A stretch of DNA of 64,000 nucleotides from Zygnema cylindricum. Lineage: Eukaryota > Streptophyta > Zygnematophyceae > Zygnematales > Zygnemataceae. The notes beneath the pieces were generated by a model. It was not told the origin of the DNA. It was given only the letters and a program-made list of their open reading frames with translations, and made no database searches. This document shows positions 1 through 59,870 of the stretch, one piece after another; position 1 is the first letter of the stretch; every line of letters begins with the position of its first letter. The DNA is taken from assembly GCA_037447655.1 (NCBI GenBank), contig JBBHKE010000060.1, positions 235,292-299,291 on the forward strand, in the 5' to 3' direction. The position numbers and the translations under genes were made by a program.

Positions 1-2
1 AT

Positions 3-1175
3 ACTAACGTAGGCATCTACAAAGGAACCCCCTTTCGAATAAATTTAATGAACGAGACGTCGACTGTTTGGCAGAAGCAGTACCCTCTCACTTTCAAGGA
101 AAATGAGTTCATCACGGCAAAGGTACAAACTCTGGTGGAAGCAGGATTGGTGCAGGAAAGTACTGGACTCCATGGATTTGCGTCCCCAACTGTTCTCCCA
201 CCCAAGAAGGATTCTTCTGGGAAAACGATAGACTTTCGGATGTGTGGAGACTACCGGATGCTGAACACGGCCACAGTACTTGACTGATACCCAATACCTA
301 CCCCTGAAGAGATTTTTGACTCACTGGCCGGGGCCACCATTTACTCCACCCTGGACATGAAAAATGGGTTCCACCAGAACTCTATAGAGCCAAAGCACTG
401 GGAAAGAACAGCTTTTTGGGCAGGATTCCGGTTGTACGAATGGCTGTACATGCCTTTCGGGCTGAAGAATGCGCCAGCCAAATTCCAACGTGCCATGGAC
501 GAGGCGCTCCGAGGGATTGATTGTGCACGGTGCTACATCGATGATGTAATTTTTTTCTCAAAGAATTTTGAGGAACACCTGGAGCACATACAGATTGTAC
601 TCCAAGCTCTCCAAGCAGCGGGCTTGAAATGTCACCCGGGTAAGGGAATTTTTGGGGTGCAGAAAATTATTTACCAGGGACACGAAGTTACCCCCGGGAG
701 AGTGGGTCCCCATATGGTCAAGGTTGCAGCCCTTGATGCCCTTCCCCCTCCTCAAGACCTCGCTGCACTCTGCACCTTTTTAGGCCTGGCTAACTATTAC
801 TGGAGATTCATCCCTGAATTTAGCAGCCACGCTCAGCCTCTGAACCAGTTGCTGCAGAAGGACCAGGAGTGGAAGTGGACGGAGGAGCAACAGATTGCCT
901 TCCAGTTCCTCAAGAATTCCCTGAAACAACACCCCGTGCTCCGAATGCCTGATCACCAGAGACCCTTCCTCCTTTACACTGATTGGAGCAGGTTTGGATT
1001 GGGAGCTGTTTTAGCCCAACTAGATGATGCTACGGCCGAATATGTGGTAGCCTACACCAATAGGAGTAACAACCGAGCGGATGGAAATTATAGCAGCTAT
1101 CACGGGGAATTACTGGCGGCGGTCTGGGCCATCCAACACTTCAGAACATACCTATACGCAGTCATTTCACGCTGA
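3..1175 (+). pseudogene. gypsy reverse transcriptase and start of RNase H (copy A)
   Basis: One frame runs from the window edge to 1175 with a single in-frame TGA at 285-287. Typical gypsy RT blocks are visible: the VQ.STGLHGFASPTVL region, LDMKNGFHQ, the catalytic box YIDDVIFFS near 535-555 (Ile replaces the more common Val), and LGLANYYWRFIPEFS. RNase H begins at FLLYTDWSRFGLGAVLAQ and continues to the block containing YHGELLAAVWAIQHF. The frame is then lost near 1160-1175, and the expected continuation (ITDHQPLKWIME) is in another frame. The enzyme would copy element RNA to DNA and degrade the RNA strand. It is inactive here. Confidence 0.9.
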
Positions 1176-2484
1176 TTACTGATCACCAACCTCTCAAGTG
1201 GATTATGGAGAAAAGCAAGCTAACTGGCAAGCTCGCCAGGAGGGTGTTGATACTACAGGAATATGATTTTGACATAATCCACTGGTCCGGAGAGATTCAT
1301 GGAAATGCCGACGGACTTAGCAGAAATCCTGATCCTTCCACCAGAGATTCCACCGGGGCCCGCCATGATGAGGATCCTGAAATCAGTTTGGGACTAATCC
1401 GAGCTTCCTTTGCATTTATTTGGCTTCCTCAATCCGGGGGGGGGAGGCCAGCTTTCTGTGCAGACGTGGAGGGTCAAGCTTCTACAGGGGCCGGGCGAAA
1501 AGACATATGGAATGACCCTGATGCGCTTCAATCTATCCTACAAGGTTCCCCTCTTCCCCATTTGTCTGGGGTGCAACTATCACGGGTGTTGACTCGAATG
1601 ACTGCATATGAATGGGAAAGGGGTATTTTTATCGGCAAATGGGTTGACGGGACGATGAAAGTGGTTCATCCACTGTCTGACCAGGAGACTCTGATTTTTC
1701 GTCTTTACCAGCAATTTGGCCATTTTGGGCAAAAACGGACCACCTCCTTGGTCGCAGGATCGTACTGGTTTCACAGGTTGCGGACCCAAGTCAAACGGAT
1801 TGTGCAGACGTGTTCCTCCTGTGACCGAGTCAAAGCAGCTTTCGACAAAAAGGGAGGAGCTCAGCTTCATTCCCTTCCCATCAAGGGGATGTTTTATCGG
1901 TGGTCTTTGGATCTGCTGGGTCCTCTCCCCACTAGCATACGAGGGAACCGCTTTGTGTTGGTAATGATAGAGCATTTTTCTAAGTGGATCGAATTGGTGG
2001 TCTTACCCAAGAAGGAGTCCAAGGCGATTGCAGACGCATTCTTGGAAAGAGTGCTTTCCCAATTTGGGGCCCCAACCAAAGTTCTGACGAACCAGGGCTT
2101 AGAATTTACGGGATAATTCTCCAACTTGTTGGAATTGTGCCTCATCGACCACCGGTTGACCAGCCGAGACCACCCACAAGCCGACGGTTTGGCCGAAAGG
2201 TGCGTGCAGACAGTGAAGCGGTCACTGCGTAAATATGCTGTGGAAGAGGATCTACGAGAGTGGGATAGAAGGGTGCCTTGGATCGCCATGGGGTACTGAT
2301 TCAGCCGGCAAGCATCCCTCCACTCTTACAATCTATATTTCATTTTGTTCGGACGGCATCTCAACCTCCCCGGCGCTGCCTCGGCCCAAGCAATGGTCCT
2401 CCCGGAGATGGACAGCAAGGGAACGGTCGAAAAATTGAATGCCGACAGGGCCACGGTATTTCACCGGGAAATGCCTCTGGCCAT
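1176..2484 (+). pseudogene. gypsy RNase H end and integrase (copy A), broken
   Basis: The frame 1205-2116 carries the RNase H end, the HHCC zinc region (GHFGQKRT to CSSCDRVK) and the start of the integrase core with the first catalytic Asp in WSLDLLGPLP. The second catalytic Asp, expected in VLTDQGSEF as in copy B, reads VLTNQGLEF, so it has changed to Asn. A stop follows at 2114-2116. After it the core continues in the same style (HPQADGLAERCVQTVKRS, with the catalytic Glu) up to another stop in the IAMGY region near 2298. Integrase would insert the cDNA into the host chromosome. This copy has lost both frame and catalytic residue. Confidence 0.88.
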
Positions 2485-2636
2485 GGGGAATTAACAAGCA
2501 GCTCAGCACCGAGATCAACTCTGGTATTCGCAACGCCGGAGCGGGAATTTTGTCCCGCGGCAACGGCGATTTCTACCCGGGGATATCGTGTATCGGATGC
2601 AACAGATAAGACAATCTGGACATTTCAGTAGGGAGG

Positions 2637-2960
2637 GTGATTTTGAAGGTAGTGGAAGTCTCCAATAAGGGGGTCTTGACACTTGAAGGGAAGGATGGGC
2701 GGAGGATCAAGGAAAATCAGATCAATGTGGCTCCTTGTCACCTCCGGGGATTGGAAGACGAACCTACTTTCCACCTTACCTATTTTGTTGATCCCCCTTT
2801 GTGTTCCTCAGACTGCCTCTCTTCTTCCTCCCAGAATTCTGTACTGATCAGTGATCGATGGGACCAGTGTGGGCATCAGTCTTGCCTCCGCTCCTCTGGG
2901 GAACCTCGTCTTAAACCCTCGGCACTCTGGTTTTGCGCGAACTGTGAATTGGGAAGGTAA
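2637..2960 (+). pseudogene. gypsy integrase C-terminal tail with decayed PHD-like finger (copy A)
   Basis: This tail resembles the copy B tail at 17530-17919. It starts with a GPY/F-like module (VLTLEGKDGRRIKENQINVAP) and ends in a cysteine-rich segment. In copy B the finger shows paired cysteines (VCEHCHKGWHDCC ... WFCGDC). Here the first pair is altered (ISDRWDQCGHQSC) while WFCANC at the end is kept, so metal binding is probably lost. The role in the live element is inferred to be target or chromatin recognition. Confidence 0.7.
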
Positions 2961-2971
2961 ACATTTAAAAG

Positions 2972-3000
2972 TCTTAGTCACCGTTGACTAAGAGGGGGGG
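2972..3000 (+). promoter_or_regulatory. Hairpin plus polypurine tract of gypsy copy A
   Basis: The inverted pair CTTAGTCA / TGACTAAG (2972-2992) runs into AGAGGGGGGG (2991-3000). The same arrangement recurs at 17932-17963 in copy B, with CTTAGTC / GACTAAG and a longer G tract. A polypurine tract primes plus-strand DNA synthesis in LTR retrotransposons. The preserved hairpin beside it is an observation, not a known feature. Confidence 0.65.
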
Positions 3001-3272
3001 AAATCAAGGAAACGGCTCCACCTCTAAGGATTTTATCCTTTCCCCCCCGGCCTGGGGGGGGAAGGAGAGGGGGGAGGGGATATCTTTTTGCCCTTCCCAA
3101 ACACTCATCCCCACCTTTGCATGCATGCTCACAGGGGCGATAAAGGTAGCTGTGGGCATAGGCATTGTGGTGGGAAGCATTCGCATTCTGGTGGGGGTTG
3201 CTTGCAGGACTCTGATGCCTATCACCCGGGCATTGGGCCCTCCTCTCATGTTTTCCGGCACGCTCGACACTT

Positions 3273-3846
3273 GTAGCGCTCGATTGTGTTATCTCGGTTC
3301 AGTTTTAATTTGAAAACCCACTTACAACCGATTGATTTTTGGTTAGGTGGACAATACACCAGCTCCCAAGTATCGGTTACCATAATTAAAGCCATCTTCT
3401 CATTGATGGCTGTCTTCCACCGATTTCTTTCTGGACAAGTCATCGCCTCTCCATAAGTTTGAGGTTCATCTTGATGAGATAGTTTAGTTAGCTTGTTATT
3501 AACCTGTTTTTCTTGCAATCTTTTGCTACTTCTCCTTCCCCCTTCAAAATCTGAGGCCGGAATAGATGGTTCTCGTGGATTCTTTTAAACAATCTCGGCT
3601 TCTCCCATATCCCTTGATTCCGAATCAATTTCCACCACGTCTTCCGCTTCGGGTAGAGTTGTTACTACAGTTTCCACAACCGAGTCTTTTTCGGTCTGAT
3701 TTGTACCTGCAAGAATGTCATCTTCTCTAAAACCTGGATAGTTTGAAAGCTCAAAGTCATCGGAATTTTTTGACTCAAATCTGATTTTTACTGACTTTGT
3801 ATACTTGAAGGGATCCACATACTTTCCTTCATCCATAACTACTACT
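3273..3846 (-). pseudogene. Ty1/copia fragment (linker and start of RT)
   Basis: The minus strand reads closely like the intact copia polyprotein at about 23612-24192. It runs from the segment following VVMDEGK through the FELPNYPGFREDDILAGTN linker to GCKWVFKLKLN and IERYKCRA. The reading frame is broken near 3580. The fragment abuts gypsy copy A terminal sequence at 3272 and unrelated sequence at 3847. No LTR or target duplication is visible, so it is a truncated scrap. Confidence 0.88.
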
Positions 3847-4611
3847 TGGGGCCGAAGGAGACAGGTTGCTTTTTCAGTACTGTCTCCTGAGAAAACCCCC
3901 AGAGAATTAAATCAATCTTTTTGTTGGAGAACGGTTGCATTGTGTCGTGGACTCTATTGCCATCTTTGTTTTGGATTGTCTTTTGTGGAGACTGTAGCAC
4001 GGGTGGGTAGTTAGCACTATCTCCTCTTTGGGCGGTTTGGACTTTCGCTGTTTGAAACTAAGAAGAGTTTTGTCGGATCCTTGCGGTGGAACCGGGAGGG
4101 GTGAGGGAGACTCATACCTGTCTTCGGGGCCATTGGGAGAGGATTTCTTCTGCTGAGTTTGGTCATCGTTGCACTCCGGGTATGTGAATTCGCTTCACCA
4201 TTATCATTGATTTCTATCTTTAATTCCATTCTCTAGGGCAAGGTGATATTGTTTAATCTGAAAAAGCCGATATTTGTTATTTCTATATTTCTACGTGGGA
4301 GTTATTTGCACACTCTTGTGGTCATCTTTGGGTTTGTCCGCAGTTTTTGCGGAAAGGATCGGACGACTCTCATTTCCTTCCTATTCTTTGAAGAGTAGCT
4401 GGGAGTGTGGCATTTAGTGGGCCTCCAGCGGAGTAGCACAGTACTGAAAAAGAAACCTGTCTCTTTAGGTTAAAAAGGATAGGTGCTCAGATCGGAGTAC
4501 ATTTATATAAGGGGATTTAGATCTTCTTCTCCAGTCAGCTATGGGGGGAGGAGAAGTTCAGGATAAGGATCTTCCAAGTGTCAGATCGGAAGAGCGAAGA
4601 GGCAAAAAGCC
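3847..4611 (+). other. Presumed 5' LTR / leader of gypsy copy B
   Basis: No coding signal is recognised here. A TATATAAG box at about 4504-4511, followed by a pyrimidine-rich stretch, would suit a retrotransposon promoter ahead of the first Gag frame. I could not match this stretch to the 3' terminal sequence after 17964, so LTR identity is inferred from position only. Confidence 0.35.
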
Positions 4612-5358
4612 GTGGCCCAAGAGGAAGAGTCTCAGATGCCTGAGGAAGCACCCCCCTTTGGCTCCCCTTTACACGTAGAGCGGTTTCTTAGGGGAGAGAT
4701 GCCTCCGGAGGTTGCAGTCAAAACTCCTCCAACGCAGCCACAGAGGCGACCCTCTCCTCCACCTCCACCTGTCTTTTCCCCCGAGAACTTTCCAACTCTG
4801 TCCGAGTCAGCCCGAGCTTGGGCAGGGGAGAGGGCGGAGAGGCCGCCCGTTTCTCCTAAAAGCCGTAGAAAGTGGTTGGCACACAAGGAAGCGATACCTG
4901 GTCCCCTTCCCGAAATTGGTCGCTTTACAAGGTCCAAGGCACTGATAGCAGAGATATACATAGATCTAGAGATTCTGTCTGATCCTAACCGGCTAGGTCG
5001 CAAGGAAATCTTAGCTTTTCATAATCTCCATGAATTGAAGGTTAAAACAAAGTTGGTGCAGCGAGTGGCCAGGTCAGACCGAGCCAAGGTGGTACGCCCA
5101 GTGGGAGGTGTAGTAGAGTTACTGAGTAGTTCGTCGGAGAGCGGATCCCCAACCTCAGCACCGGAGCAACAGGGAGGACCATCAACTTACTACCCGCAAC
5201 CCACTCAGTCTCAAGAAACTGCTACCAGTAGACCTTCTAGGGCAGAGCAACTTCTCGGGGCCGGATCAGGGAAGGGAGTAGTAAGCGGAAGTTACCTGAG
5301 CCTAAAAGAGATTTCCGGTTCAACCATCGGGACAGCAAAGGTCGATTTGCTCCCCTAG
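4612..5358 (+). pseudogene. Gag N-terminal region of gypsy copy B, proline-rich
   Basis: This 248-codon frame begins at GTG, and the true start is uncertain. It is rich in Pro, Ser and charged residues (a run of five prolines near residue 50, then FSPENFPTLSESARAWAG). It ends at a TAG stop at 5356-5358. I recognise no domain. The position directly upstream of the Gag core suggests an extended N-terminal Gag segment. The next frames in the same direction (5484-6089 and 6258-6614) look like its continuation after frameshifts. Confidence 0.5.
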
Positions 5359-5367
5359 TCAAAGAAG

Positions 5368-6614
5368 AGCCGTTCTTTCCTTCTGCCTCAATTTCCCCAC
5401 GTTCTATGTCTCCTTGCGCACCAGTTGTCCGACCATCCGAATGACTATGGCGTTAAAGGCATACGGACCCCGAGGTACCCGACTTGGGGATTGCGGATCT
5501 CTCGGGTGTGGTGAGCAGCACCCAGAAATTGGTTGAGATTTTGCGATCGCAGGATAAGGCTACAGCGGGGGCCGGACCCGTCACAATAGATTGGGATGCC
5601 CTTGAAGAGGAAAGGAAGAGAGCATTGGAACAGGAGCTGATCCTGATACGGGAGGCTAGACGGAGATCTGGGGGAATCCTTAGTGGACAGGTAGCACCTC
5701 CCCGTAGAACAGGTCCCGCGACAGAAGTACAACCTCTGGATCAGGCAACTCCCCCTGTCACGCGAGATCCCCGGACTTCACCAAAACCGAGACCAGAAAC
5801 TCTTATTCAGCGGGAAGGGGAGGAAACAACAGGGCCTAACAAAAAAGGGTTGGGTGCAGATTTGCCGAGTAATGCGGTAGCTGCGGCTACAAATCTCCCT
5901 ACCATTGTCTCGCTCGAGGGATCTTCTACCGTGGAGGCCGTGGTGCAGCTACAACGAGACCAAAGACTACACATTTCCCTCGGACTTACTACTCCTCCTC
6001 CATCGCCACCTCAGGCATCCTCTCCTTCTCCTTCTGTTTGTCCGGCCGCTGCAGTCCGTGGGTCACCAGGACCACCCGTCTTACCGTAGAAGTACGACGT
6101 TTGTGCTTATTCTCCTCCTCACCGACGTTCTCCCGAATCTTGCGAAGGAACTCCTCCACCAGAAACCTCCAAATGGCGTACACGGAAACAAACACCTTTC
6201 CCTCGTAGTCCTCCGTCTTCTCCATCCCCTGCTCCACCAATCCCTCAAGTACCACCGGTGATTAAACCTATTCTCCACATTCCCTCGGTGGAAACACTTC
6301 ACCGGGAGGAACGGGCCTCTTCTGGGTATAGAGGAGCAGGACTTCGGGCAACTTTTCCTAAACAGATAAGCTCCTCGTTTTCCAAGGGCCAACTCAAGGG
6401 AGATACAGGTCCTCTCACCATCTCACCAGTAATCGGAACCTCCTCAGTGGGGGGGAGTGCCATCTCTCGTCAGACTGCTCTCTCTACCGGAGAAGGAGGC
6501 GAGCTCGAGCCAGAAGACGCAGATCCAGGGCAATTTCACCGGCTTAGTTTGTTAGCCCAACCGGACCATCCTCTTCACAGTTCACCAACCTTGCAGAGGA
6601 GGAAAAAGAAATAG
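5368..6614 (+). pseudogene. Gag middle region of gypsy copy B, frameshifted
   Basis: Coding-like sequence lies in at least two frames. At 5484-6089 there is a probable coiled-coil stretch (WDALEEERKRALEQELILIREARRR) followed by Pro/Thr-rich linker. At 6258-6614 it is Ser/Gly-rich. The overlapping +1 frame at 5905-6261 reads PPSPP-type low complexity. No enzyme motif is present. It is assigned to Gag only because it lies between two Gag-like segments on the same strand. Confidence 0.45.
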
Positions 6615-6753
6615 GGGACGTAAGGATCTTTACAGGAGATAGCTCCGGAATCGCTTTCTCTAATTTCAAACTGCTGTGGAAGTTGTTCACCCAATCTGAA
6701 ATCAACAAATACAGGGGAGGGGCCATTCCATCAGATTTTGAAATAACCCTGTT

Positions 6754-7514
6754 TTGGATGATGGTAAATTATTAACCGGAGGAGCTTTGGCCGATTACAA
6801 GGAGCTTCAACCTTTGTTGATGGCCCCCAGTATCAAAATATCGGATCCAACTCTGGACGACAAGGCTCTTCAGGCAGCAGCCGACCTGACTGCCGCAGCC
6901 GCAGCTCCTCTCACCCCCAATTTCACCATCGATATGAAACTTCAGGCCCAAGGCAGGGCCTATGTCAACCACCTTCAAGCTGTACATGCAGCCGAAGCAG
7001 CCACCCGGATGGTTGCCAATCCTAATCCATGTACCACTCTTCTGGACGCTTGGAGACTCCTTTACACAGAAAAGAACGAAACTACCATCAAGGAGTTCAC
7101 AGACTTCCGCTGTTTGAAGAATGAAACTCCTTAGACGTTGTTCAACCGCCTCTCCAGCCTCTGCCAGAAGACCAAACTGTCCACCATCGATACACCGGCT
7201 ATGGCCACCAAATATTATGTCGACGTTCGAAATTCCTTCGGGCCAACGGGACAGGCAGCTCTGCACAATTGGAGTGCCACTTAAGCTATACACGATCGGA
7301 ATCCCACAGCTCAAGAAATTTCATTGGCTGCTATGAAATCGTATGATCATTTTGTTAATAGCAAGGCATGAGAAAAGGTTGTTACCGCGAAATCCAGAGC
7401 CAACTTTGCAGGTTTCGCCGTGGAAACATCGCTCAGCCACGCCAAACAGACAGAACTGCAAGCTTTGCGGAAGCTTAAGGGAAACAGGAAGCGGATGCCC
7501 GACCAGAACCTGCA
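6754..7514 (+). pseudogene. Gag capsid-like region of gypsy copy B, frameshifted
   Basis: The frame 6754-7134 is Ala-rich and helical (ALQAAADLTAAAAAP, then AYVNHLQAVHAAEAATRMV, then TTLLDAWRLLYTEKNETTIKEF). After the stop at 7132-7134 a similar reading continues in another frame (FNRLSSLCQKTKLSTIDTP, then YYVDVRNSFGPTGQAALHNW). The pattern of a helical core just before the zinc knuckles fits a capsid domain. This is inference from position and composition. Confidence 0.5.
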
Positions 7515-8849
7515 ATGGGTGGGGATGAAAAAGTTTTTCTTTACAACTGCCTGAACTGTAACCAGCCCGGTCACGGATGGAAGAGGTGCCCTCGAAAGCT
7601 CAAACCAAAACTCGCCATCAAGCAGAAGGAGTTTGAGAGGGAGCGTGCGAAAAGAACAAGGAAACAGCAAGAATGCAAGCAAGGAAGCGGAGGAGGAGAC
7701 CGAACCCTGGTCACTAAGGAAACCTATAAACCTACTCCTCGCTCTAAAACCGCCAAAGTGTCTCAATCCCAGTTGAGACAAATCCGACTTCCGAAATTCG
7801 ATGAGGCTCAAATCTCTAATGAGCTAATGGGGAAGTATACTACTGAAGGGTCAAAATGTGAAGCTTGTGGGTTCATGGGCCACAAAGAAGGGCAATGCTT
7901 TCGAAAAAATGGGGTTCCGAAGAAGATGATGCAATATGCTTTGTTTACAAGCGAAGGGGAAACTGCCGTTAATCCTCTGCCACTGCAACTTTTGTATCCC
8001 TGGGGACAATCTCCAAATGAACCGGGCCCCAGCAGACTAACACCGGAACATATCATTCAGGAACAGAGCACTCAGTTGGCCACTTTGGCAACAGAACTGG
8101 CCGCTCTCCGACTGAGATCCTCTGCCCGCACTCCTCAACCTCTTACGCCGGCTCAGAAACTGCAGAAACAAAAACAAGAACTGCTACAAAAGCTAGCGGA
8201 GCTGGAGCAGCAGACCACGTTGGGTGGAGATGATGATGACCTGATGGGTTGGGATATGGAGCCTCCAAAGGCTCAGCATGCTAGGACATTTCTGTCCGGA
8301 GCATGGAACGTTGGTGTAGGGGACAGTCGCAGGCAACTGCGCTCTACAACGTCATCCCAAAGAAAAGACAAACAACCGATGGAACAAAAGGACCACAGTC
8401 GCAAAGCCACCGGCCCCTTATCCTTTACCCCGCGAGCAGTCCTTCTAAACAGTAACATTGGACTGGGACTGAAGCCAACTAACCCGCCTCCTCCGGCTCC
8501 GAAGAAACTTCCTCCCGGTTTTGAAGATTACAAGAAGACACAGCCGAAAGAAAATACTTCAACCACTGAAACAGATCAGGAGTGGTTCGACAGATACATG
8601 GCTGAGAGACCGTCCACAGATCCGCCAATTACACCTCCTACGGGAAATTCTGACGCAGAAAGTGAGGAAGCAGGGGGGGGGGAACAGGAGAAATCGGAAG
8701 ACGAGGACTCACCCATTTCATCGCCCAAAGCTCTCCCTCCTTCCTCCAAACCGGCAGTTATGCTAGTACGACACTTAATGCCCTACGCCTTGACGCATGT
8801 CAAAACGCTGGCTTCCTCCCACAATATGCCTGAAAAAACCCTCATTTAG
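7515..8849 (+). pseudogene. Gag nucleocapsid with two CCHC zinc knuckles (copy B)
   Basis: A 444-codon frame contains two CX2CX4HX4C knuckles: CLNCNQPGHGWKRC near residue 12 and CEACGFMGHKEGQC near residue 113. A coiled-coil-like Gln/Leu-rich segment (LQKQKQELLQKLAELEQQ) and an acidic tail follow. Knuckles of this type bind element RNA for packaging. The frame ends in TAG (8847-8849), but the same frame continues open into the protease region, so the stop is either a mutation or a readthrough site. The listed start is arbitrary, because upstream Gag is in another frame. Confidence 0.75.
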
Positions 8850-9049
8850 GCATTAGGGGAAGAAATTCACACTAGGAGGAAAAGGGTCACGTTGGCAGAA
8901 CCGCCCAAGACAGTCTTCATGTCGGCAAAACAAATAACCTTTATGGTAGATAACGATTATAAGGCCCTTTCGGTGGCTCTTATTCTCAACAGGACGGGAA
9001 ATTTTAAACTTAATGGATACGCCGGGTACCAGGATGCAGTGGTGGATAC
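8850..9049 (+). pseudogene. Aspartic protease, N-terminal part (copy B), cut by insertion
   Basis: The frame continues from the nucleocapsid and ends ...YQDAVVDT at the left target duplication (9045-9049). The catalytic motif of retroelement proteases is D-T/S-G. Its Asp-Thr codons are here and its Gly codon lies on the other side of the family-C insertion, at 12890 onward. The protease would cut the Gag-Pol polyprotein. Confidence 0.75.
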
Positions 9050-10505
9050 TGTTGTTTTTGAAGATTTAGTTTCGTGCGTACATGAAATTTGGTGCACACG
9101 CGACGTTTCGTGCGTATACATTTATGTGATATACTGTGGTGGTTCGAATGGATTTGTGGATTGGGGGGTAATTGTACGGATGAATTTAAAGTGACGTAAA
9201 TGACAAATTAAGTGGCGCGGAATGCGTAATAGAAATGGACGGCGGATCGCGAAGCGATCCGACTTTGAAATATTCGAAGTGTTTGAAAATGTACGTTGGT
9301 CGTACGAAATATAATGCAACAGGCACATTAATGAAAAGGACGCCGCCGGTACGGCGTATCAATTTTGGACAGTTGTACTTTTATTTGGTCAGCGGCATTT
9401 ATGGCGAAGTACGTAGTAACGGTACGGACTAATTTGGATGGTTTGACGAGGTTTCGACAAGTGGATTTTCATGACCACGCGGCGCGACATCAAGGGTGCC
9501 GATTAACAGCGACGGACGGCGGATATAGGCCGCCGAGATTTTTTATGAAGTGGTGACGCGAAATCGCGTCAATCACACGATATTTATATTTGGACGTTCC
9601 GGATTGTTTGACAAGTGATTCGTGGTACACGTGGAAGGCGGATGGCGTCCGCCGATATTTTCAAGGGATCTCATTATCTTTAATGACGTATTATTAGGTG
9701 GACCGTACATATGCGATGTCGGTTCACTACGTGGAATTATCTACGAGTGACTAAGCGAGTTGTCGCTTATGACGCGTATTTTGCGGACGCGTCGGTGAAA
9801 ATATTTGAAATAACATTGTTTTGTCGTATGTGTAATAATTATTTAGTATTGATTATGACAGTTTTTATTTAGATGATCATTTAGGGTTTTGGCAGTTTAA
9901 TTTGTGTGTTGTCGTACTTGCCGACAAGTGTACGCTTATGATTGGTTGACTTTCAGGTGTACACTTACAGTTAGGATTATTTGTCGTAATAGGTTCTCAT
10001 GATATAATACTACTTAGTGGAAGGTACGTTGGCTATTTTGTCATGTAGCAATTCGTTCACAGCTCACAAGTGTATATATAGGAATGAGCTTTGTTAGGAA
10101 TAAATAATCAATGCTGGTTAGTAAAGTGGGGACCAAAGATGTAGTATTTTAGGGTTGTCGATTAGGTCATGCACTTTTGAATGATATAATGATTATACCT
10201 TGATTATACTCTTGTTTATGTGTGATGCATTTGTTTTTATTATTTATGTTATTTTATATATGTTTTGCATTGTTAATGCATTTGTCCTAGGGTTTGTTTA
10301 TGTCGATTATTCCATCAAACCTTAGATGATGTCATAGGGTTTATTTATGTTGATTATTCCATGAAACCCTAAATGTTGTTTGTTGCGTCTGTGTACGCAT
10401 ATGGAGGATGCATTTCATATGATTGTTCGTCGACCTATTTTTGCTTAGCTTTTTGCATGATAGTTTGGGTGGCTTCTGCGGTCTATTTTAGACCAAAGAA
10501 CAACA
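9050..10505 (+). repeat. 5' LTR, family C
   Basis: Repeated at 11434-12889. Contains many GTAC cores and TATATATAGG near 10074-10083 as a promoter candidate. Small open frames inside it are identical in both LTRs and are not genes. Confidence 0.93.
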
Positions 10506-10520
10506 GGTTATGGGCCCACG
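10506..10520 (+). promoter_or_regulatory. Primer-binding site, half-tRNA type (family C)
   Basis: GGTTATGGGCCCA starts at the first base after the LTR. It is complementary to the anticodon arm (around the CAU anticodon) of initiator tRNA-Met as I recall it, rather than to a tRNA 3' end. Drosophila copia is the known precedent for this kind of priming. Confidence 0.75.
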
Positions 10521-11433
10521 CCCCATCTATCATATGTTAGGTTAAGTCGAGATAGGATTGTGTCACACGCATTGTAGCGGGTTAATTTTGTTCTTGCTGG
10601 TTGTATTGCAGTAATGGTGTCTGTGTACCCATGAGATCAGCCTTATCATAGTGTTGGTATGTGCCGAGTTTAATCTTGCATCGCCCCAAGGGTTAACTTA
10701 GTGACAGTGCCGAAATGTCTACCCTCAATGAAAATGATTTATTTTGAGAAATGATATTTTATTTTTGGAAAAATACATGTTTATTTTTGAAGAAGCATTT
10801 CGAAATGTGGAGATTTGACGTTTTAAGGAGAGATGTGGAAGGTGGAGATTCGACGTTTGGGGGAGAGAGATCCGGAAGGTGGAGTTGTGACATGTGGTGG
10901 AGAGATCCAAATTTTGTGGATCGATGATTGTTGAAAATTGGATTTGTAATGTAGATTTTGAGTTGTTGGAATTTTTTGCGAAATGTGACATTATTAGAAT
11001 TTTTTTGGAAAATACTATTTTGTATATGAATTTTTATTGGAAATTTTGGGATTTGATAGTTTATGAAAAGAAAAATATTGAAATCTATATTTGTTTTAGT
11101 TAAGGTAGAAGTTACTTAAGTGGGGATATTTTGTTAGTGTGATCTTTTGGCTTTAATTATTTAGTTGATTTGTGATAGAATTTTGGGAATGTAAATCCGG
11201 ATTTAGATATTGGAAGGAATTATTTTTGTTGTAATCGGAAGATGAAATCATATATATATTGTGTATTATGAAATCTGGATGGTATGTGGAGGAAGCGGAA
11301 GCGATGGTGGAACAAGTGAGAAAATTCCGGCGGAGGCATTTGGCGGATTCAGATGGAGGAGACATCAGGAGGTGACAGTGTGACAGCTGATGACGTGGCA
11401 TAATGGATGCACAAAACTAAATTTTCGGGGGAG
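10521..11433 (+). other. Internal region of family-C element, non-coding
   Basis: AT-rich sequence with no recognisable gag or pol. The last bases, 11427-11433 (GGGGGAG), are a short polypurine tract next to the 3' LTR. Tandem-like purine phrases (GGAGATTCGACG, GGTGGAGATTC) occur near 10800-10890. Confidence 0.7.
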
Positions 11434-12889
11434 TGTTGTTTTTGAAGATTTAGTTTCGTGCGTACATGAAATTTGGTGCACACGCGACGTTTCGTGCGTA
11501 TACATTTATGTGATATACTGTGGTGGTTCGAATGGATTTGTGGATTGGGGGGTAATTGTACGGATGAATTTAAAGTGACGTAAATGACAAATTAAGTGGC
11601 GCGGAATGCGTAATAGAAATGGACGGCGGATCGCGAAGCGATCCGACTTTGAAATATTCGAAGTGTTTGAAAATGTACGTTGGTCGTACGAAATATAATG
11701 CGACAGGCACATTAATGAAAAGGACGCCGCCGGTACGGCGTATCAATTTTGGACAGTTGTACTTTTATTTGGTCAGCGGCATTTATGGCGAAGTACGTAG
11801 TAACGGTACGGACTAATTTGGATGGTTTGACGAGGTTTCGACAAGTGGATTTTCATGACCACGCGGCGCGACATCAAGGGTGCCGATTAACAGCGACGGA
11901 CGGCGGATATAGGCCGCCGAGATTTTTTATGAAGTGGTGACGCGAAATCGCGTCAATCACACGATATTTATATTTGGACGTTCCGGATTGTTTGACAAGT
12001 GATTCGTGGTACACGTGGAAGGCGGATGGCGTCCGCCGATATTTTCAAGGGATCTCATTATCTTTAATGACGTATTATTAGGTGGACCGTACATATGCGA
12101 TGTCGGTTCACTACGTGGAATTATCTACGAGTGACTAAGCGAGTTGTCGCTTATGACGCGTATTTTGCGGACGCGTCGGTGAAAATATTTGAAATAACAT
12201 TGTTTTGTCGTATGTGTAATAATTATTTAGTATTGATTATGACAGTTTTTATTTAGATGATCATTTAGGGTTTTGGCAGTTTAATTTGTGTGTTGTCGTA
12301 CTTGCCGACAAGTGTACGCTTATGATTGGTTGACTTTCAGGTGTACACTTACAGTTAGGATTATTTGTCGTAATAGGTTCTCATGATATAATACTACTTA
12401 GTGGAAGGTACGTTGGCTATTTTGTCATGTAGCAATTCGTTCACAGCTCACAAGTGTATATATAGGAATGAGCTTTGTTAGGAATAAATAATCAATGCTG
12501 GTTAGTAAAGTGGGGACCAAAGATGTAGTATTTTAGGGTTGTCGATTAGGTCATGCACTTTTGAATGATATAATGATTATACCTTGATTATACTCTTGTT
12601 TATGTGTGATGCATTTGTTTTTATTATTTATGTTATTTTATATATGTTTTGCATTGTTAATGCATTTGTCCTAGGGTTTGTTTATGTCGATTATTCCATC
12701 AAACCTTAGATGATGTCATAGGGTTTATTTATGTTGATTATTCCATGAAACCCTAAATGTTGTTTGTTGCGTCTGTGTACGCATATGGAGGATGCATTTC
12801 ATATGATTGTTCGTCGACCTATTTTTGCTTAGCTTTTTGCATGATAGTTTGGGTGGCTTCTGCGGTCTATTTTAGACCAAAGAACAACA
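11434..12889 (+). repeat. 3' LTR, family C
   Basis: Same length and practically the same sequence as 9050-10505. It ends in AACAACA directly before the right copy of the GATAC target duplication. Confidence 0.93.
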
Positions 12890-13324
12890 GATACCGGAGC
12901 TCTTCCAAACTTAATAACTACATCAGCGTTACAACAAATGCCCGAGGAACTCCGGCCAAAAATCAGTCCAAGTGACATATGCTTGAGCACAATCAGCAGT
13001 GGCAGCCAACCAGTACATGGGATCATAAAAGCCATGGAAATCGAATTTGCTGACGACGAAGGCCAGCACGTGCATATTCGGCTACCCTTCCTAGTGGTGG
13101 AAGGTAAGCAATTTGAAATTTTGCTGGGTATGGCTACGTGGACAAGGTTGAACATGGAGTTGAGCGTATTGAGGGAACAAGTTATAGTCTCAGACCATGA
13201 TGATCCGGAAGGAACAAAAGTGGTGGTCCCCTTGGATTTGTGGAACCGGGGAAAAACGGCTGTTCCGATGTGTGGATGCTATCCCGTCTACTCTGCCTCA
13301 ACCCCCTCGAAGCCGTTCAAATAA
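12890..13324 (+). pseudogene. Aspartic protease, C-terminal part (copy B)
   Basis: The sequence resumes with the Asp-Thr-Gly codons (the GATAC duplication is the first part) and reads through ALPNLITTSALQQMPEEL. It reaches the second conserved protease block FEILLGMATWTRLNMEL, which corresponds to the ILG(M/R)DW-type block of gypsy proteases. A stop lies at 13322-13324. The reading frame of 8850-9049 would be restored only without the 3845-bp insertion plus duplication. Confidence 0.75.
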
Positions 13325-13396
13325 TTTAACGATATCGCTGATTCTATCTAGCAATTCCCTATTTCTAAGCGGTGGGAAAAGGAGTATCAGAACCGA

Positions 13397-14491
13397 TTGG
13401 TACAGATGGCCACACTTCGGCGGGAAGTGGACAGGAGTTTGGCTGCAATATCACCCGGAGCAGCAAAAGTCCCCCGGTCAAAACTTCCAACGGTTCCTAA
13501 CAAAGGGAAAGACTTTAATCGACAAGTGGTGTCACTACAAATCCCGCTTTCAAAACTTAGGATTCTATCCCTATTTTCTGGCATTAGTTCCGATCTGGAA
13601 GCCGTCCTGAAAGCTGGATACCAAATAGAAACTTACTCGGCAGTAGAGATTGACCCGGACGCCCGTGCAGTCAGTGAGTACCGCCTGCAACAGCTGCACC
13701 AACTTTACCCACAGCAACTTCTGGTGTCCGCCATGTTCAACTCTCACCGCACGCTTCCCCAGAATGTGGACGGTATCACGGATTCCCATTTGGAAAAGCT
13801 CGGAAGGGTAGACCTTGTGGTCGCTGGATGGCCATGCCAGGGGTATTCGCTAGCAGGACAGGGCCAGGGACACCAGGACGTCCGTAGCAGAAAATTCTTT
13901 CAAATGACCAGACTAATAACAGGGTTACAGGAACGCCAGGACACACCATTAGGGTACGTCTTGGAGAACGTTCACCCCACAGATGATAAGAGAAAACAGG
14001 TGGTCAACAGCTGGAACCAAGTGACCAAGGTTATAGGGACTCTTATAGTTTTTGATGCAGCTCAGATCGGATCGAGAGCCCAGAGAGTTCGGGCATATTG
14101 GACCAACTTGGTTCCCCTTCCAATCCTCCAACAGCTGTTGAGAACACAGGTTTCGGATCCTAACATCACGGTTTAACAGATCCTTAGACCGGGGCGAATA
14201 GCCACACCGGTGATCACAGCTGACAAAGCACCCTTCTTCTGTTGTAATAAGCCTGGATATCCACGGAAGGCCCTACCAACTCTGGTATCTTTTCCTAACA
14301 GCCATGCTTACCGGAAGGGTGCACCACGAATGATCTTTGACAGTACAACCGCCACGTGGACAGTGCCAAATATTACAGAACGGCAACTAGCAATGGGGTT
14401 TCAACAGGGAACCACAGCTGCGCCAGGGGTATCAGCCTCAAAAAGGTGCAGTTTAATCGGACAAAGCATGGATTTAAATGCAATTTCCTAG
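13397..14491 (+). pseudogene. DNMT3-like cytosine-C5 DNA methyltransferase inside gypsy pol (copy B)
   Basis: One frame with a single TAA at 14174-14176 (codon 260) carries the ordered motifs of C5 methyltransferases. Motif I LSLFSGISSDLEAVL is near residue 55, where S-adenosylmethionine binds. A motif II-like YSAVEIDPDA follows. Motif IV GWPCQGYS has the catalytic Cys at about residue 147 (13835-13837). Motif VI ENV is at 190-192, and motif VIII GSRAQRVR includes Gln229 and Arg232. After the stop come a motif IX/X-like ERQLAMGF and a closing SLIGQSMD. Motif spacing and the late RIAT...T segment resemble DNMT3-type enzymes; the subtype is inferred. It lies between protease and RT on the element's strand, so it is an element gene rather than a host gene. 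The start is uncertain (TTG at 13397 or ATG at 13406), and it may be part of a longer Pol. Only the stop breaks the domain; visible catalytic residues are kept. Confidence 0.88.
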
Positions 14492-14819: not shown

Positions 14820-16160
14820 TTGGGTAGGCCACCGGAAGCATTGGCGGCAGTGGAACCCGGGAAGATGGACTGGACTCTAGGTGAACAGCTAGATCCACAA
14901 CAGATGACCCGACTCTCCAAGCTGTTAGAAGAGAACGGGCAGGTGTTCGCCTGGTCTGACACCGATGTAGGGATCTATAAAGGGACTCCTTTTCGGATTG
15001 ACTTGATCGACGAGACAGCTACTATTTGGCAGAAACAGTACCCTCTCAGTTTCAAGGAGAAGGAGTTCATCACTTCAAAGGTGCAGACTTTGGTGGAAGC
15101 TCGGCTGGTTCAGGAGAGTACAGGACTACATGGGTTTGCCTCACCAACCGTGCTCCCGCCAAAGAAAGACTCCTCCGGAAAAACTGTAGATTTCCGGATG
15201 TGTGGGGACTATCACATGCTCAACGCGGCAACTGTCTCCGACCGTTATCCTATGCCTACCCCGGAAGAGATCTTCGACTCTCTTGCTGGGGCCACCATTT
15301 TTCCACTTTGGATATGAAAAATGGATTCCACCAGATTGCAATGGAGCCGAAACACCGAGAGAGGACTGCTTTTTGGGACGGATCCAGGCTATATGAATGG
15401 GTGTACATTCCATTTGGCCTCAAGAGTGCACCTGCCAAATTCCAACGGGCCATGGACGAGGCTTTCCGAGGAATTGATTTCGCACGGTGTTATATCGACG
15501 ATGTTATCATTTTCTCCAAGACATTCGAAGAACACTTGAGCACATACAGATCGTTCTCCGGGCACTCCAAGCAGCGGGCTTGAAGTGTCACCCGGGGAAG
15601 GGCATCTTTGGGGTGCAGAAAATTATTTATTTGGGTCATGAGGTGACTCTTGGGACACTGGGTCCCCACATGGTTAAGGTGGCAGCCCTAGATGCTCTTC
15701 CACCCCCGCAGGACATTTCTGCTCTTCGTACTTTCCTGGGCCTTGCCAACTATTACCGGCGGTTTATTCCTGAATTTAGTAGCCACGCTCAGCCATTGAA
15801 CTAATTGTTGCGAAAGGACCAGGAGTGGCTGTGGAAGGAAGAACAGCAGATAGCGTTCCAATTCCTGAAGGATTCCCTCAAACAACATTCTGTGCTCCGA
15901 ATGCCCGATCACCAGCGGCCTTTTCTCCTTTATATAGATTGGAGCAGGTTCGGCTTGGGAGCAGTTTTAGCTCAATTGGACGATGCAGGGGCTGAGTATG
16001 TAGTGGCCTACGCAAGCCGGAGTAATAACAGAGCCGAGGGGAATTACATCTGTTACCATGGGGAATAACTCTCCGCGGTTTGGGCCATCCAGCACTTCCG
16101 GCCTTACCTCTACGGAGTACACTTCACCCTTATTACAGATCACCAGCCCCTCAAATGGAT
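14820..16160 (+). pseudogene. gypsy reverse transcriptase and RNase H (copy B)
   Basis: RT starts upstream of VGIYKGTPFRIDLIDETATIW and keeps the blocks LHGFASPTVLPPKKD, MKNGFHQIAMEP, the catalytic YIDDVIIFS near 15490-15516, and FLGLANYYRRFIPEFS. RNase H has FLLYIDWSRFGLGAVLAQ. Breaks against copy A: a one-base loss in a T run near 15300, another near 15537, TAA at 15802-15804 (CAA or CAG in the parent), and TAA at 16066-16068 where copy A has a Leu codon. Neighbouring domains agree with a single ancestral pol. Confidence 0.9.
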
Positions 16161-17454
16161 CATGGAGAACAGTAAGTTGACTGGAAAGCTAGCCAAATGG
16201 GTTCTCATCTTGCAGGAATATGATTTCAGCATCATCCATAGAGCCGGGGAGATTCATGGGAATGCCGACGGACTCAGCAAGAATCCGGACCCTTCCACCA
16301 AAGACTCTACTGGGGCGCGACATGACGAAGACCTTGAGCTCAGCCTGGGACTTATCTGGGCTTCCTCTGCTTTTATTTGGCTGCCTCGGGCCGAAGGAGG
16401 ACTGTCAACTTTTGCTGCAGATGTAGAGGGGCAGGCCCCCATTGGAGCCGGCCGGAAAGATATATGGAATGAGCGATTCCCTCCAATCTATCCAGAAGAG
16501 CTCTCCTCTATCCCACCTTGCCGGAAGTAAATTGTCCCGTGTTTAGAACTGAATGACGGCTTATGAATGGGACCGAGGCATCCTTCTCCGGAAATGGGCC
16601 GATGGGACGAGGAAAAATGTTCCTCCTCCAACAGATCTGGAAACGCTCATTGTTCCGCTTCACCAGCAATGCGGGCACTTCGGACAGAAACGAACCACCT
16701 CGCTAGTCATAGGGTCGTATTGGTGGTATGGGTTGCGCGGGCCCAGGTCAATCGTGTGGTGCAAACGTGCCCTTCTTGTGACCGGGTAAAAGCAGCTTTT
16801 GACAAAAAGGGTGGAACTGAGCTTCACTCCCTCCCCATCCGGGGGATGTTTTACAGATGGTCACTAGATCTGCTAGGACCACTTCCCACTAGCCAGAGGG
16901 GGGACCGTTTTGTTCTGGTCATGATTGAACACTTCTCTAAGTGGATTAAATTGGTGGTTCTTTCTCGAAAGGAGTCCAATGCAATCGCGGACGCATTCTT
17001 GCAGAGAGTGTTGTCTCAATTTGGAGCACCAGCCAAAGTTCTGACGGATCAGGGGTCCGAGTTTGCCGGAGAATTTTCTAACCTTCTGGAGAAGTGCCTC
17101 ATTGACCACATGTTAACCAGCCGAGACCACCCCCAAGCCGACGGCTTGGCCGAGAGGTGCGTAGAGACAGTGAAGCGGTCCCTACGAAAATATGCGGTTG
17201 AAGAGGATTTGGGGGAGTGGGACACACGGGTGCCTTGGATTGCCATGGGGTACAGGTTCAACAAGCAGGCATCTCTCCACTCCTATAGCCTTTACGTCAT
17301 TCTCTTTGGCCGACATCTCATCCTACCAGGGGCTGCGTCGGCTCAGGCGGTTGTTCTTCCGGAGATGGACAACCGGGGTACTGTAGAAAAACTGATTGCC
17401 GACCGGGCTAAGGTATTTCAGCGGGAAATACCTCTGGCCATGAGCAATTTATAG
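16161..17454 (+). pseudogene. gypsy integrase core (copy B)
   Basis: After the RNase H end (KLTGKLAKWVLILQEYDF), sequence near 16470-16545 is damaged. Integrase then shows its HHCC zinc region (HQQCGHFGQKR ... CPSCDRVK), split by a frameshift near 16735. The catalytic triad is intact: Asp in WSLDLLGPLP, Asp in VLTDQGSEF, and Glu in HPQADGLAERCVETVKRS. A TAG at 17452-17454 separates this from the tail. Copy A has lost the second Asp, so copy B is the better reference. Confidence 0.88.
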
Positions 17455-17919
17455 GATGCTCAGCACAGAGATCAACTCTGGTATTCCCAACGACGGAGCG
17501 GCAATTATATCCCCCAGCAACGTCGATTTGTGCCCGGGGATTTAATGTATCGCATGCAACAGAAGAAGGATACTTTGGACATTTCGGCCGGACGCGTGAT
17601 TCTGAAAGTTGTGGAGGTCTCAAACAAAGGGGTTCTTACCTTGGAGGGGAAGGATGGCCGCAAAATTAAAAAAAAACAGATCAATGTGGCCCCTTGCCAT
17701 GTGCGAGGGTTAGAAGATGAACCCACTTTCCACCTCCCTTATTTTGCAGACCCTCCAGCCTGTTCCTCTGCCTGCCATGTGTCCTCCGCACCCAACCTCC
17801 TGTTGGTGTGTGAACACTGTCACAAGGGGTGGCATGACTGCTGCCTACCTCTGAATTGGGAGCCCCGCTCTCAACTTGCAAATCCGTGGTTCTGTGGGGA
17901 CTGCGAGTTTGGCGGCTAA
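17455..17919 (+). pseudogene. Integrase tail with GPY/F-like module and PHD-like zinc finger (copy B)
   Basis: The sequence reads RRFVPGDLMYRM, then a GPY/F-like module (KVVEVSNKGVLTLEGKDG), then CSSAC, LLLVCEHCHKGWHDCCL and PWFCGDC before TAA at 17917-17919. The Cys/His spacing (C-C, C-C, H-C, W-C-C) is that of a PHD finger. Many plant gypsy elements carry a chromodomain at this place instead. PHD fingers bind histone tails in host proteins; a targeting role here is inference. Confidence 0.75.
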
Positions 17920-21169: not shown

Positions 21170-22210
21170 TGAAACTCTGAGACCTCCATAAGTCCTCAGA
21201 GTGGACAGCTTCCAAGAAGCCTCTAGGATAATCCTGACCCCTTTGTGTTTAAGCAAAAATAACTGCCACCCTGGCAGGCAAAAACTCTGACCAACTTCAC
21301 CCCTGTGAAGACAAGACTCCCCTGAGTCGATAGCAAAAAGAATCTCTGAATTTGCTCCCCTGAGCAGTAAGTTATGGAGGGTCAAAGTTGACCTTTTGTA
21401 CAGAAGCTCTCTGGGAGAGAGGGTCCTATCTTCTAATTTTTCTAAGTCCTATCTCTCTCACAGACTCTATCTACTGATGTACGGAACCAATCAGAATTGA
21501 GTTCCGTACGTAAAAGTACAGCCGCCGGTGTACTTTCAGTACGGACATTGTACGACATGGCCTAAATGTCGACACATGTCAAATCCGGATTCGGTGCCAT
21601 AATCTCCGGAGATTCTACAATCCAACGGAATTTCGCCACGCGTCATCCGATGTGGCGATGGCCACAAACCGCCGAAATCTTCCTCCGCGATCTCGGCGCT
21701 AATTCCGGCCGTCCGATTAAATTAAGATTTAATCGTAGCCGTAATAAATACATGCGCGGTATTTATTTCACTTCCGAAACAAATGCGCGGTATTGATTCG
21801 TAATCCGTACCGGCATCCGTACCGGATCTATGTATCCCGTAACCCGTAACAGTTAAATGAATTTATCGTACGTATACATCTTTAAATCATTATCAAACTA
21901 TATAGTACATATCACGATAGCTAGACCTAACGGCTAAGGCTACCGGCTAATCCCTATCTGCCGGCCGGTAGGTACAGAGATCAATTCCTGCCGCCGGCGC
22001 TTAACTTTTAATTAAATAAATAAACCCTAGGATTAAATTCCCGTAAACTTCAGGATAGCCAAGGTAGCCATGGCTCTAGCTTCCTCTTCAACTTCTCAGT
22101 GACTGCAACAAGTTTGAGAGTTGGAGAGAGAAGTTAGAGATAGACTGCCTCGGCTTCTTTCTATTTCTATTTAGACCTAGAAAATACTAATAAATCCATT
22201 AGTTTCTACA
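21170..22210 (-). repeat. 3' LTR of intact copia
   Basis: Identical by eye to 26563-27603. Ends are TG...CA on the element strand. Confidence 0.95.
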
Positions 22211-22223
22211 CTCCCCTTATTTT
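22211..22223 (-). promoter_or_regulatory. Polypurine tract of intact copia
   Basis: On the minus strand AAAATAAGGGGAG lies immediately before the 3' LTR. It would prime plus-strand synthesis. Confidence 0.8.
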
Positions 22224-27603: not shown

Positions 27604-27608
27604 CTGTA
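27604..27608. repeat. Target site duplication CTGTA (right)
   Basis: Matches 21165-21169. Confidence 0.9.
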
Positions 27609-40150: not shown

Positions 40151-40166
40151 AAAAGGGGTAAAACAA

Positions 40167-59842: not shown

Positions 59843-59870
59843 AAGAATCCCACAAGATTACGTGCACTTT

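What the first reader, a model, noticed from the sequence alone, without database searches (positions are those of the whole stretch)
13397..14491. A Ty3/gypsy retrotransposon that encodes its own cytosine DNA methyltransferase
Seen: motifs I, IV (catalytic Cys), VI, VIII and the closing IX/X-like block lie in order in one frame, on the element's strand, between protease and RT. Known: C5 methyltransferases of this type are host chromatin enzymes, and their capture by retrotransposons has been reported in charophytes and dinoflagellates. Inferred: the element could methylate its own DNA or copies, changing how the host silences or tolerates it. Only one nonsense codon breaks the domain, so sister copies may be active.
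Basis: partly seen in the sequence, partly recalled or inferred. Interest (0 to 1): 0.9.

Follow-up and report, generated by a model that had tools for sequence, protein, structure and literature searches.

The report
Retrotransposon carrying a DNA methylation enzyme

Summary
Window 13397-14491 encodes a C5 cytosine methyltransferase (MT) closest to DNMT3, motifs in normal order, between protease and RT of a decayed gypsy-type element. It is not a one-off: a genome search scored 141 of 1572 candidate places and all 141 match. Of 61 protease-RT pairs within 6 kb, 56 have an MT-sized gap and one is shorter, so MT looks fixed in the family. A UAG just before MT is kept in 23 of 23 copies covering it; the stop inside MT belongs to this copy. 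MT variants shared between copies are depleted of amino-acid changes relative to singletons (p 0.0011). Pol ends in a PHD-like finger; B-A-B split repeats follow in 14 of 26 stretches. This is the kind described as KnitGypsy-Dnmt3 in Klebsormidium (PMC5890265). Added here: relatives in Closterium and, as Gag-like proteins, in Marchantia; one MT clade (100/95); a second location, RNaseH-MT-integrase-PHD. Best mechanism, inferred only: de novo self-methylation of new copies.

The parts
3844..4439 (+). 3' part of repeat A (A1); its 5' part is replaced by a Copia fragment
   Evidence: 93.8% identical to A positions 591-1180 of another copy; Copia match 3270-3844
4567..8849 (+). gag region, frame-broken; two CCHC knuckles, the first at 7548-7589
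   Evidence: ORFs; CCHC motifs read by eye; no Pfam gag match
8850..9049 (+). 5' part of aspartic protease, ending inside the DTG codons
   Evidence: sequence; junction
9050..12889 (+). nested LTR element without long frames (LARD-like) splitting the protease; duplication GATAC at 9045-9049 and 12890-12894
   Evidence: LTRs 99.93% identical; junctions
12890..13321 (+). rest of aspartic protease
   Evidence: Asp_protease_2 E 0.014, below cut-off; the same protease stretch of another copy matches 150 of 150 scored genome places, 816 candidates, this one at 87%
13349..13351 (+). UAG stop between protease and methyltransferase, conserved across copies
   Evidence: TAG in 23 of 23 copies that cover the site; CAATTC follows in 22 of 23
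13397..14491 (+). DNMT3-type C5 cytosine methyltransferase domain; copy-specific stop at 14174-14176
   Evidence: PF00145 E 5.5e-13; DNMT3A nearest
14967..15804 (+). reverse transcriptase, frame-broken
   Evidence: RVT_1 E 2.3e-16
15804..16530 (+). RNase H
   Evidence: RT_RNaseH E 3.4e-16
16567..17454 (+). DDE-type integrase
   Evidence: rve E 1.4e-11
17770..17904 (+). PHD-like finger at the C-terminus of pol; C4HC3 ligands present by eye
   Evidence: PF00628 20.1 bits, below cut-off 24; 39.2 bits in relative P0017
17968..18171 (+). repeat B, after a purine tract; the internal A and second B are missing in this copy
   Evidence: 95.6% identical to B of another copy; B-A-B in 14 of 26 stretches
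1..2960 (+). 3' part (RT to PHD-like end) of a second, older copy of the family
   Evidence: 77.6% identical to 14967-17746; its protease lies 1608 bp before its RT, outside the window; its MT was not read

Best explanation
This is a high-copy retroelement with a gypsy-type Pol that carries a built-in DNMT3-type methyltransferase: gag-PR | UAG | MT-RT-RNaseH-IN-PHD, with DIRS-like split repeats A...B-A-B. Shown: anatomy, presence throughout the copies examined, constraint on MT, conserved UAG. Inferred: MT is made only when the UAG is read through (or by restart), so in small Pol-like amounts inside the particle. It travels with RT and integrase, methylates the newly made element DNA before or just after integration, and the PHD finger ties the integration/methylation complex to a chosen histone state. 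A pre-methylated insertion enters the genome already in a tolerated, low-expression state, which lowers harm to the host and helps high copy numbers persist; bursts start from copies that escape the mark.
For: 141 of 141 scored places (1572 candidates) match MT. 56 of 61 PR-RT pairs have an MT-sized gap, none under 1000 bp; 35 PR-MT-RT triples were scored in all three searches. MT polymorphisms shared by 3 or more copies are 37 synonymous:28 nonsynonymous against 101:196 for singletons, p 0.0011. The Cys-Gln of motif IV, Glu-Asn of VI and the two Arg of VIII are invariant in nine aligned relatives at 36-50% identity to the first. The MT and RT trees both recover the RNaseH-MT-IN-PHD group at 100/99. 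UAG kept 23 of 23. DNMT3 is the closest solved family; related SymbioDIRS-Dnmt3 domains methylate CG in yeast (PMC5890265). B1 and B2 of one copy are 96.8% alike on average, 90.3% between copies, so the B repeats appear to be renewed at each round.
Against: No activity, expression or methylome data. The KnitGypsy-Dnmt3 domain showed no methylation in yeast (inconclusive). CG depletion (observed/expected 0.62) is weaker than in neighbouring Copia elements without MT (0.48-0.49), so nothing points to extra methylation of this family. The constraint test is not significant for PHD (p 0.46) and RNase H (p 0.095), both small, nor for the two RT rows, whose frame is mixed. MT is the fastest-diverging of three domains compared (mean aa identity PR 77.8, MT 63.6, RT 89.0 in 16 divergent triples). 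Three of the nine aligned relatives have ECQ in motif IV and one lacks the LF of motif I; another relative, P0012, has Y for the catalytic Cys.
Confidence: 0.5

Rival explanations
1. Shield or weapon: the MT marks the element's DNA so that host nucleases, sensors or rival elements spare it, or it acts on invading DNA; silencing is a side effect.
For: An anti-viral role of retrotransposon methylases has been proposed (PMC6338049, passages, there as speculation). Fast MT divergence against RT fits an arms race.
Against: No nuclease partner appears among the Pfam matches of the two long open pol frames scanned; no data on such sensing in these hosts.
Confidence: 0.2
2. The MT domain is kept mainly as a nucleic-acid-binding or structural part of Pol, or acts on RNA, with DNA methylation of little account.
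For: The KnitGypsy-Dnmt3 domain was inactive in yeast (inconclusive). Some relatives carry changed motif I or IV residues.
Against: Cys-Gln of motif IV, Glu-Asn of motif VI and two motif VIII arginines are invariant in the nine aligned relatives; the nearest solved family is the DNA enzyme DNMT3, with DNMT2 far weaker.
Confidence: 0.2
3. Passenger: a chance host-gene capture amplified with the element, without function.
For: This copy and most scored places are broken (113 of 141 with a stop).
Against: Among 61 PR-RT pairs only one has a gap too short for a whole MT (1057 bp); constraint on shared variants; relatives with MT before RT elsewhere, Klebsormidium included.
Confidence: 0.05
4. Host-directed effector: Pol-borne MT alters methylation of host loci in trans, for example under PHD targeting.
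For: Copy number is high; de Mendoza et al. raise accidental action of the enzymes on the host methylome for Symbiodinium (passages).
Against: K. nitens, with fewer copies than Symbiodinium, has an ordinary plant-like methylome; no data for this host.
Confidence: 0.05

Closest known systems
KnitGypsy-Dnmt3 of Klebsormidium nitens (de Mendoza et al. 2018, PMC5890265)
   Same: DNMT3-type domain inside a Gypsy Pol, DIRS-like repeat structure with Gypsy domains, purifying selection on the domain. The K. nitens protein P0040 has MT before RT.
   Different: Different genome (353 Mb assembly); domain only 37% identical to P0040. PHD-like finger here; none found by Pfam in P0040, which is marked partial, and the word PHD is absent from the paper's main text. 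Conserved UAG before MT here; not examined there.
SymbioDIRS-Dnmt3 (Symbiodinium; same paper)
   Same: DNMT3-type domain in a retroelement Pol; DIRS repeat order A-coding-B-A-B.
   Different: Tyrosine recombinase there; rve-type integrase here.
Gag-like MT proteins of Marchantia polymorpha (P0009 Mp_4g09160, P0013, P0020, P0024) and MT proteins of Closterium (P0055, P0059, P0063, P0068 and three shorter)
   Same: Same MT clade as the window element. CCHC and D(T/S)G motifs before MT in the four Marchantia proteins by pattern match; RVT_1 beside MT in Closterium P0068.
   Different: In Marchantia the listed frame ends after MT and no RT was seen. Pfam finds only the methylase in P0009 and P0013, and this element's protease does not match them, so their being retroelement parts is inferred.
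PAT-like DIRS elements (A1-B1-A2-B2 split direct repeats; PMC4157794, passages)
   Same: Repeat order A-coding-B-A-B.
   Different: DIRS have a tyrosine recombinase; here a DDE-type integrase, TG...CA ends and, in one of two copies testable, a 4-bp AATT duplication.
DNMT3A/DNMT3B
   Same: Closest solved catalytic domains, same motif order.
   Different: No ADD or PWWP match beside the domain; the PHD-like finger sits at the far end of Pol.

Membership tests
C5 cytosine methyltransferase | PF00145 above curated cut-off | tested here: met
   49.5 bits against 22
C5 cytosine methyltransferase | catalytic PCQ, ENV and motif VIII arginines in order | tested here: met
   window ORF; invariant columns
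DNMT3 family | closer to DNMT3 than to DNMT1, DNMT2 or DRM | tested here: met
   ranking; no plant DNMT3 was available for the trees, only a DNMT3A fragment
DRM | rearranged motif order (VI-X before I-V; recalled) | tested here: not met
   motifs run I, IV, VI, VIII, IX, X
DNMT3 family | de novo DNA methylation activity | not testable with these tools
   needs a bench assay
Ty3/gypsy | order PR-RT-RNaseH-IN with rve integrase | tested here: met
   no RT tree against other retroelement families was made
Ty3/gypsy | two identical terminal LTRs | tested here: not met
   A...B-A-B instead; no B found before the 5' A in the two copies with both ends read. Hence 'gypsy-type Pol', not a plain LTR element
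DIRS | tyrosine recombinase instead of DDE integrase | tested here: not met
   rve and Integrase_H2C2 matches, no phage-integrase match in the two long frames scanned
KnitGypsy-Dnmt3 kind | DNMT3 domain in Gypsy Pol plus DIRS-like repeats | tested here: met
   against the legend read; the figure itself is not held
KnitGypsy-Dnmt3 kind | common descent of MT and RT with the K. nitens element | tested here: inconclusive
   same MT clade and same side of the RT tree, but no plant DNMT3 and no MT-free retroelement RT was included
PHD finger | PF00628 above cut-off | tested here: inconclusive
   20.1 bits (window), 21.5 and 17.5 (two copies) against 24; C4HC3 present by eye; P0017 above cut-off

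The most novel reading that the evidence does not exclude
One ancient capture of a DNMT3 gene founded a lineage of green-plant retroelements that pair a DNA-methylation writer with a PHD chromatin reader, replicate with DIRS-like split repeats yet integrate with a DDE integrase, moved the writer once within Pol (PR-MT-RT against RNaseH-MT-IN), and still live in a land plant (Marchantia), against the published view of a separate acquisition in the Klebsormidium lineage and absence from land plants.
Probability: 0.4. Interest if true: 0.8.

Novelty: new variant of a known kind. Interest (0 to 1): 0.62.

Why it matters
DNA methylation is how plants silence transposons, so an element that brings its own DNMT3-type enzyme reverses the usual arms-race picture. 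A family with more than a hundred places in one genome, some with open frames, would let a methylome test directly whether elements methylate themselves. The relatives in Closterium, Klebsormidium and probably Marchantia would make this an old, retained strategy rather than a curiosity of one alga, and Marchantia is a tractable laboratory plant.

Tried and rejected
Rejected: single-locus capture. Rejected: DRM, DNMT1/CMT or DNMT2 origin (motif order). Rejected: the UAG before MT as plain decay (23 of 23 copies). Considered and dropped: exchange of MT modules between subfamilies, suggested by RT 82-94% but MT under 70% alike in 32 pairs. The protease is intermediate (77.8%), and the RT of the old copy is 90% alike in protein while its DNA from RT to IN is 77.6% alike, so faster MT evolution is enough. 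Led nowhere: IMG/VR scan (one distant hit, 28%); tRNA scan (none); host identity (not settled: an unnamed assembly of 352.8 Mb in 2689 contigs). The second MT placement did not show up as a closer set in this genome (P0017 domain: 119 of 119 scored places, 1677 candidates, 38-47% alike). Not used: the two RT rows (frame mixed) and the IN row (wrong frame, redone). Target duplication: AATT in one copy, none clear in the second copy with both ends read. In that second copy the two A repeats are only 83% alike, against 96% in the first. No primer-binding site was recognised by eye.

Full report
What is there. The ORF 13352-14176 and its in-frame continuation 14177-14491 encode a C5 cytosine methyltransferase (MT). 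Pfam PF00145 scores 49.5 bits against a cut-off of 22. The best solved structures are DNMT3A chains. With a profile of nine relatives the order is DNMT3A (1.2e-24), DNMT3B/3C, then much weaker 4onj/4onq (recalled as tobacco DRM), DRM2, HhaI and DNMT2; DNMT1 is not among the 60 listed. The motif order is the normal one, which separates it from the rearranged DRM enzymes (motif names and the DRM order recalled). The domain sits between an aspartic protease and RT-RNaseH-integrase on the same strand.

The element around it. The protease motif DTG is split by a nested LTR element without long frames at 9050-12889, with 99.93% identical LTRs and a GATAC duplication on both sides. Pol ends in a PHD-like finger (20.1 bits, below the Pfam cut-off of 24). 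All C4HC3 ligands are visible by eye, and the relative P0017 passes the cut-off (39.2 bits). Two copies in the same genome have MT, RT, RNase H, H2C2 and rve integrase and the PHD-like finger in one open frame.

How common. The window lies in an unnamed 352.8 Mb assembly. A DNA search with 901 bases found 495 candidates, of which 40 were scored and all matched at 85-100%. A protein search with the 274 residues before the window's own stop found 1572 candidates, 141 scored, all matching at 56-100% identity; 28 of 141 hold no stop over that length. Only the best candidates are scored, so counts are lower bounds and lean to close copies. I fetched the 3' side of 25 copies and mapped them with the window copy, 26 stretches in all. 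MT is followed by RT on the same strand in 25 of 26, twice with a Copia insertion between or inside, and a PHD-like end is seen in 19 of 26. Joining the scored hits of protease (150 of 816 candidates), MT (141) and RT (139 of 3631 candidates) gives 35 PR-MT-RT triples. It also gives 61 PR-RT pairs within 6 kb, of which 56 have gaps of 1500-1800 bp, one 1057, and four 2422-5800. An MT-less form did not show in these capped lists.

Decay and constraint. The stops at 13322 and 14174 belong to the window copy: 15 of 15 other copies covering 13322 have a sense codon there, and open copies run through 14174. Of 26 MT stretches, 10 have neither stop nor frameshift in the aligned part, one of these being split by a Copia insertion. 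Variants seen in one copy only are 101 synonymous and 196 nonsynonymous; variants shared by three or more copies are 37 and 28 (p 0.0011). Integrase gives 36:13 against 90:173 (p 4.2e-7). RNase H (13:8 against 49:72, p 0.095) and PHD (4:4 against 22:39, p 0.46) are not significant; the RT rows mix frames and are not used. So MT appears to have been under purifying selection while the family moved, and decays after insertion. The test is simple and rests on copies of one subfamily. MT is nonetheless the fastest of three domains: mean identity 77.8% (PR), 63.6% (MT) and 89.0% (RT) in 16 divergent triples.

The UAG. A TAG codon ending 45 bases before the stated feature is kept in 23 of 23 copies that cover it (27 stretches given), followed by CAATTC in 22 and TAATTC in 1. 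A UAG followed by CAAUUA is a known leaky stop of tobamoviruses (recalled, not tested); here the last base differs. I read this as the gag-PR / MT-RT-RNaseH-IN-PHD boundary, crossed by read-through or restart. That is inference.

Repeats. Two copies were read at both ends. One has repeat A (1.18 kb) before the coding region and B (205 bp)-A-B after it, its two A repeats 96% alike. The other has the same order with a shortened internal A, only 83% like its 5' A. B-A-B order occurs in 14 of 26 stretches. In 13 of these 14 the internal A begins TGTCAAGC, and B ends CGACA in 14 of 14 at the outer end. In 11 of the 13, B and A meet as GACA-two bases-TGTC, like a closed circle junction; in two the B side reads AACA. 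B1 and B2 of the same copy are 96.8% alike on average against 90.3% between copies, and the own partner ranks first in 10 of 14, so the B repeats appear to be renewed from one template at each round. This is the arrangement of PAT-like DIRS elements (passages of PMC4157794), yet the integrase is of DDE type. The outer ends are TG...CA, and one of the two copies has an AATT duplication. The window copy keeps only part of A1 and one B.

Relatives. A search with the MT part of an open frame gave 44 proteins from 4970 candidates at E<=1e-5. Among them are four Marchantia polymorpha proteins and one of Klebsormidium nitens. A profile search gave 32 at E<=1e-8 (7994 candidates scored), seven of them named Closterium. 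Domain order in the 44: 7 have MT before RT as here, 11 end with MT as the last domain found (9 of these with a D(T/S)G motif before it), and 26 fit RNaseH-MT-IN-PHD (16 complete, 10 partial). The Marchantia proteins belong to the 11; Pfam sees only the methylase in the two scanned, and this element's protease does not match them. In MT trees all these form one clade apart from a DNMT3A fragment and five short unnamed methylases that look bacterial (99/98, 100/95), and the RNaseH-MT-IN-PHD set is one clade (100/99). The RT tree of 26 rows also gives that set at 100/99. So MT and RT have largely travelled together, and one move inside Pol is the simplest reading. Limits: four short rows were left out of the MT trees (P0001, P0047, P0049, P0050) and eight shorter rows, three Closterium rows among them; no plant DNMT3 gene and no MT-free gypsy RT were available; three rows have long branches.

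What is known. De Mendoza et al. 2018 (PMC5890265; seen: text parts 1 and 3 of 7, and passages) describe KnitGypsy-Dnmt3 in Klebsormidium nitens. It has a DNMT3 domain in a Gypsy Pol, with the repeat structure of a DIRS element and domains typical of Gypsy, under purifying selection, not shown active in yeast (inconclusive), while SymbioDIRS-Dnmt3 domains methylate CG. They take it as an independent acquisition in the K. nitens lineage. Morozov et al. 2019 (PMC6338049; [quoted passage not shown] The window element is of the same kind as KnitGypsy-Dnmt3. Literature searches were few. One search (DNMT3, retrotransposon, Marchantia, Gypsy and Klebsormidium together) found no paper. In one search (four of five terms, Closterium among them) none of the 10 papers listed of 135 holds Closterium. 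One search (Gypsy, PHD finger and others) listed 8 papers, none evidently on this. Searches were listings; searches failed. No search was made for the UAG or the second placement, and the library lacks most subscription journals, so novelty in print is not established.

Mechanism. Shown: domain, order, presence across copies, constraint, repeats, UAG. Inferred: Pol-linked low production, methylation of new element DNA, PHD targeting, and benefit through tolerated, pre-silenced insertions. Against it: no activity data, and CG observed/expected of this pol (0.62; mean 0.63, range 0.51-1.03, in 20 copies) is higher, not lower, than in the Copia elements beside it (0.48-0.49). Rivals are a shielding role, a structural role, trans effects on the host, and a passenger, the last disfavoured.

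Verdict. A real, high-copy family with a gypsy-type Pol bearing a DNMT3-type enzyme: a new variant of a kind reported in Klebsormidium, with evidence that the kind is older and wider than reported.

Noticed in passing
21170-27605: Complete Copia element on the minus strand: LTRs of 1043 bp 100% identical, one 1454-aa open frame; a very recent insertion.
   Followed up: no
36652-42466: Older, broken and rearranged Copia relative, about 80% identical to the one above.
   Followed up: no
9050-12889: The nested LARD-like element is rich in CG (observed/expected 1.56 against 0.48-0.83 in the other stretches computed) and nearly new; relatives of its LTR lie at 42.6-44.8 kb, mostly reversed.
   Followed up: partly
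4583-4595: A 13-base match to a common sequencing-adapter sequence (recalled) in the gag leader, absent from the 5' pieces of four other copies; chance or assembly trace.
   Followed up: partly
46611-47831 and 56399-57637 (minus strand): Pieces that look like host genes: a C-terminal SEC-C-like motif with a long glycine run, and a MYND-like finger split over two exons (names recalled, read by eye).
   Followed up: no
59261-60757: Repeated BED-like zinc-finger frames in both orientations, perhaps hAT-like (by eye).
   Followed up: no
about 44900: A short run of N in the window (X residues in an ORF).
   Followed up: no
own genome, e.g. contigs C1344, C1407, C449: Further PF00145 places with long open frames (up to 2395 aa) that are not among the 141 and match P0017 at 38-41%: perhaps a second MT-bearing family; not read.
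   Followed up: partly
P0012: A close relative of the Klebsormidium MT has Y in place of the catalytic Cys, so some MTs in this lineage may be inactive.
   Followed up: no
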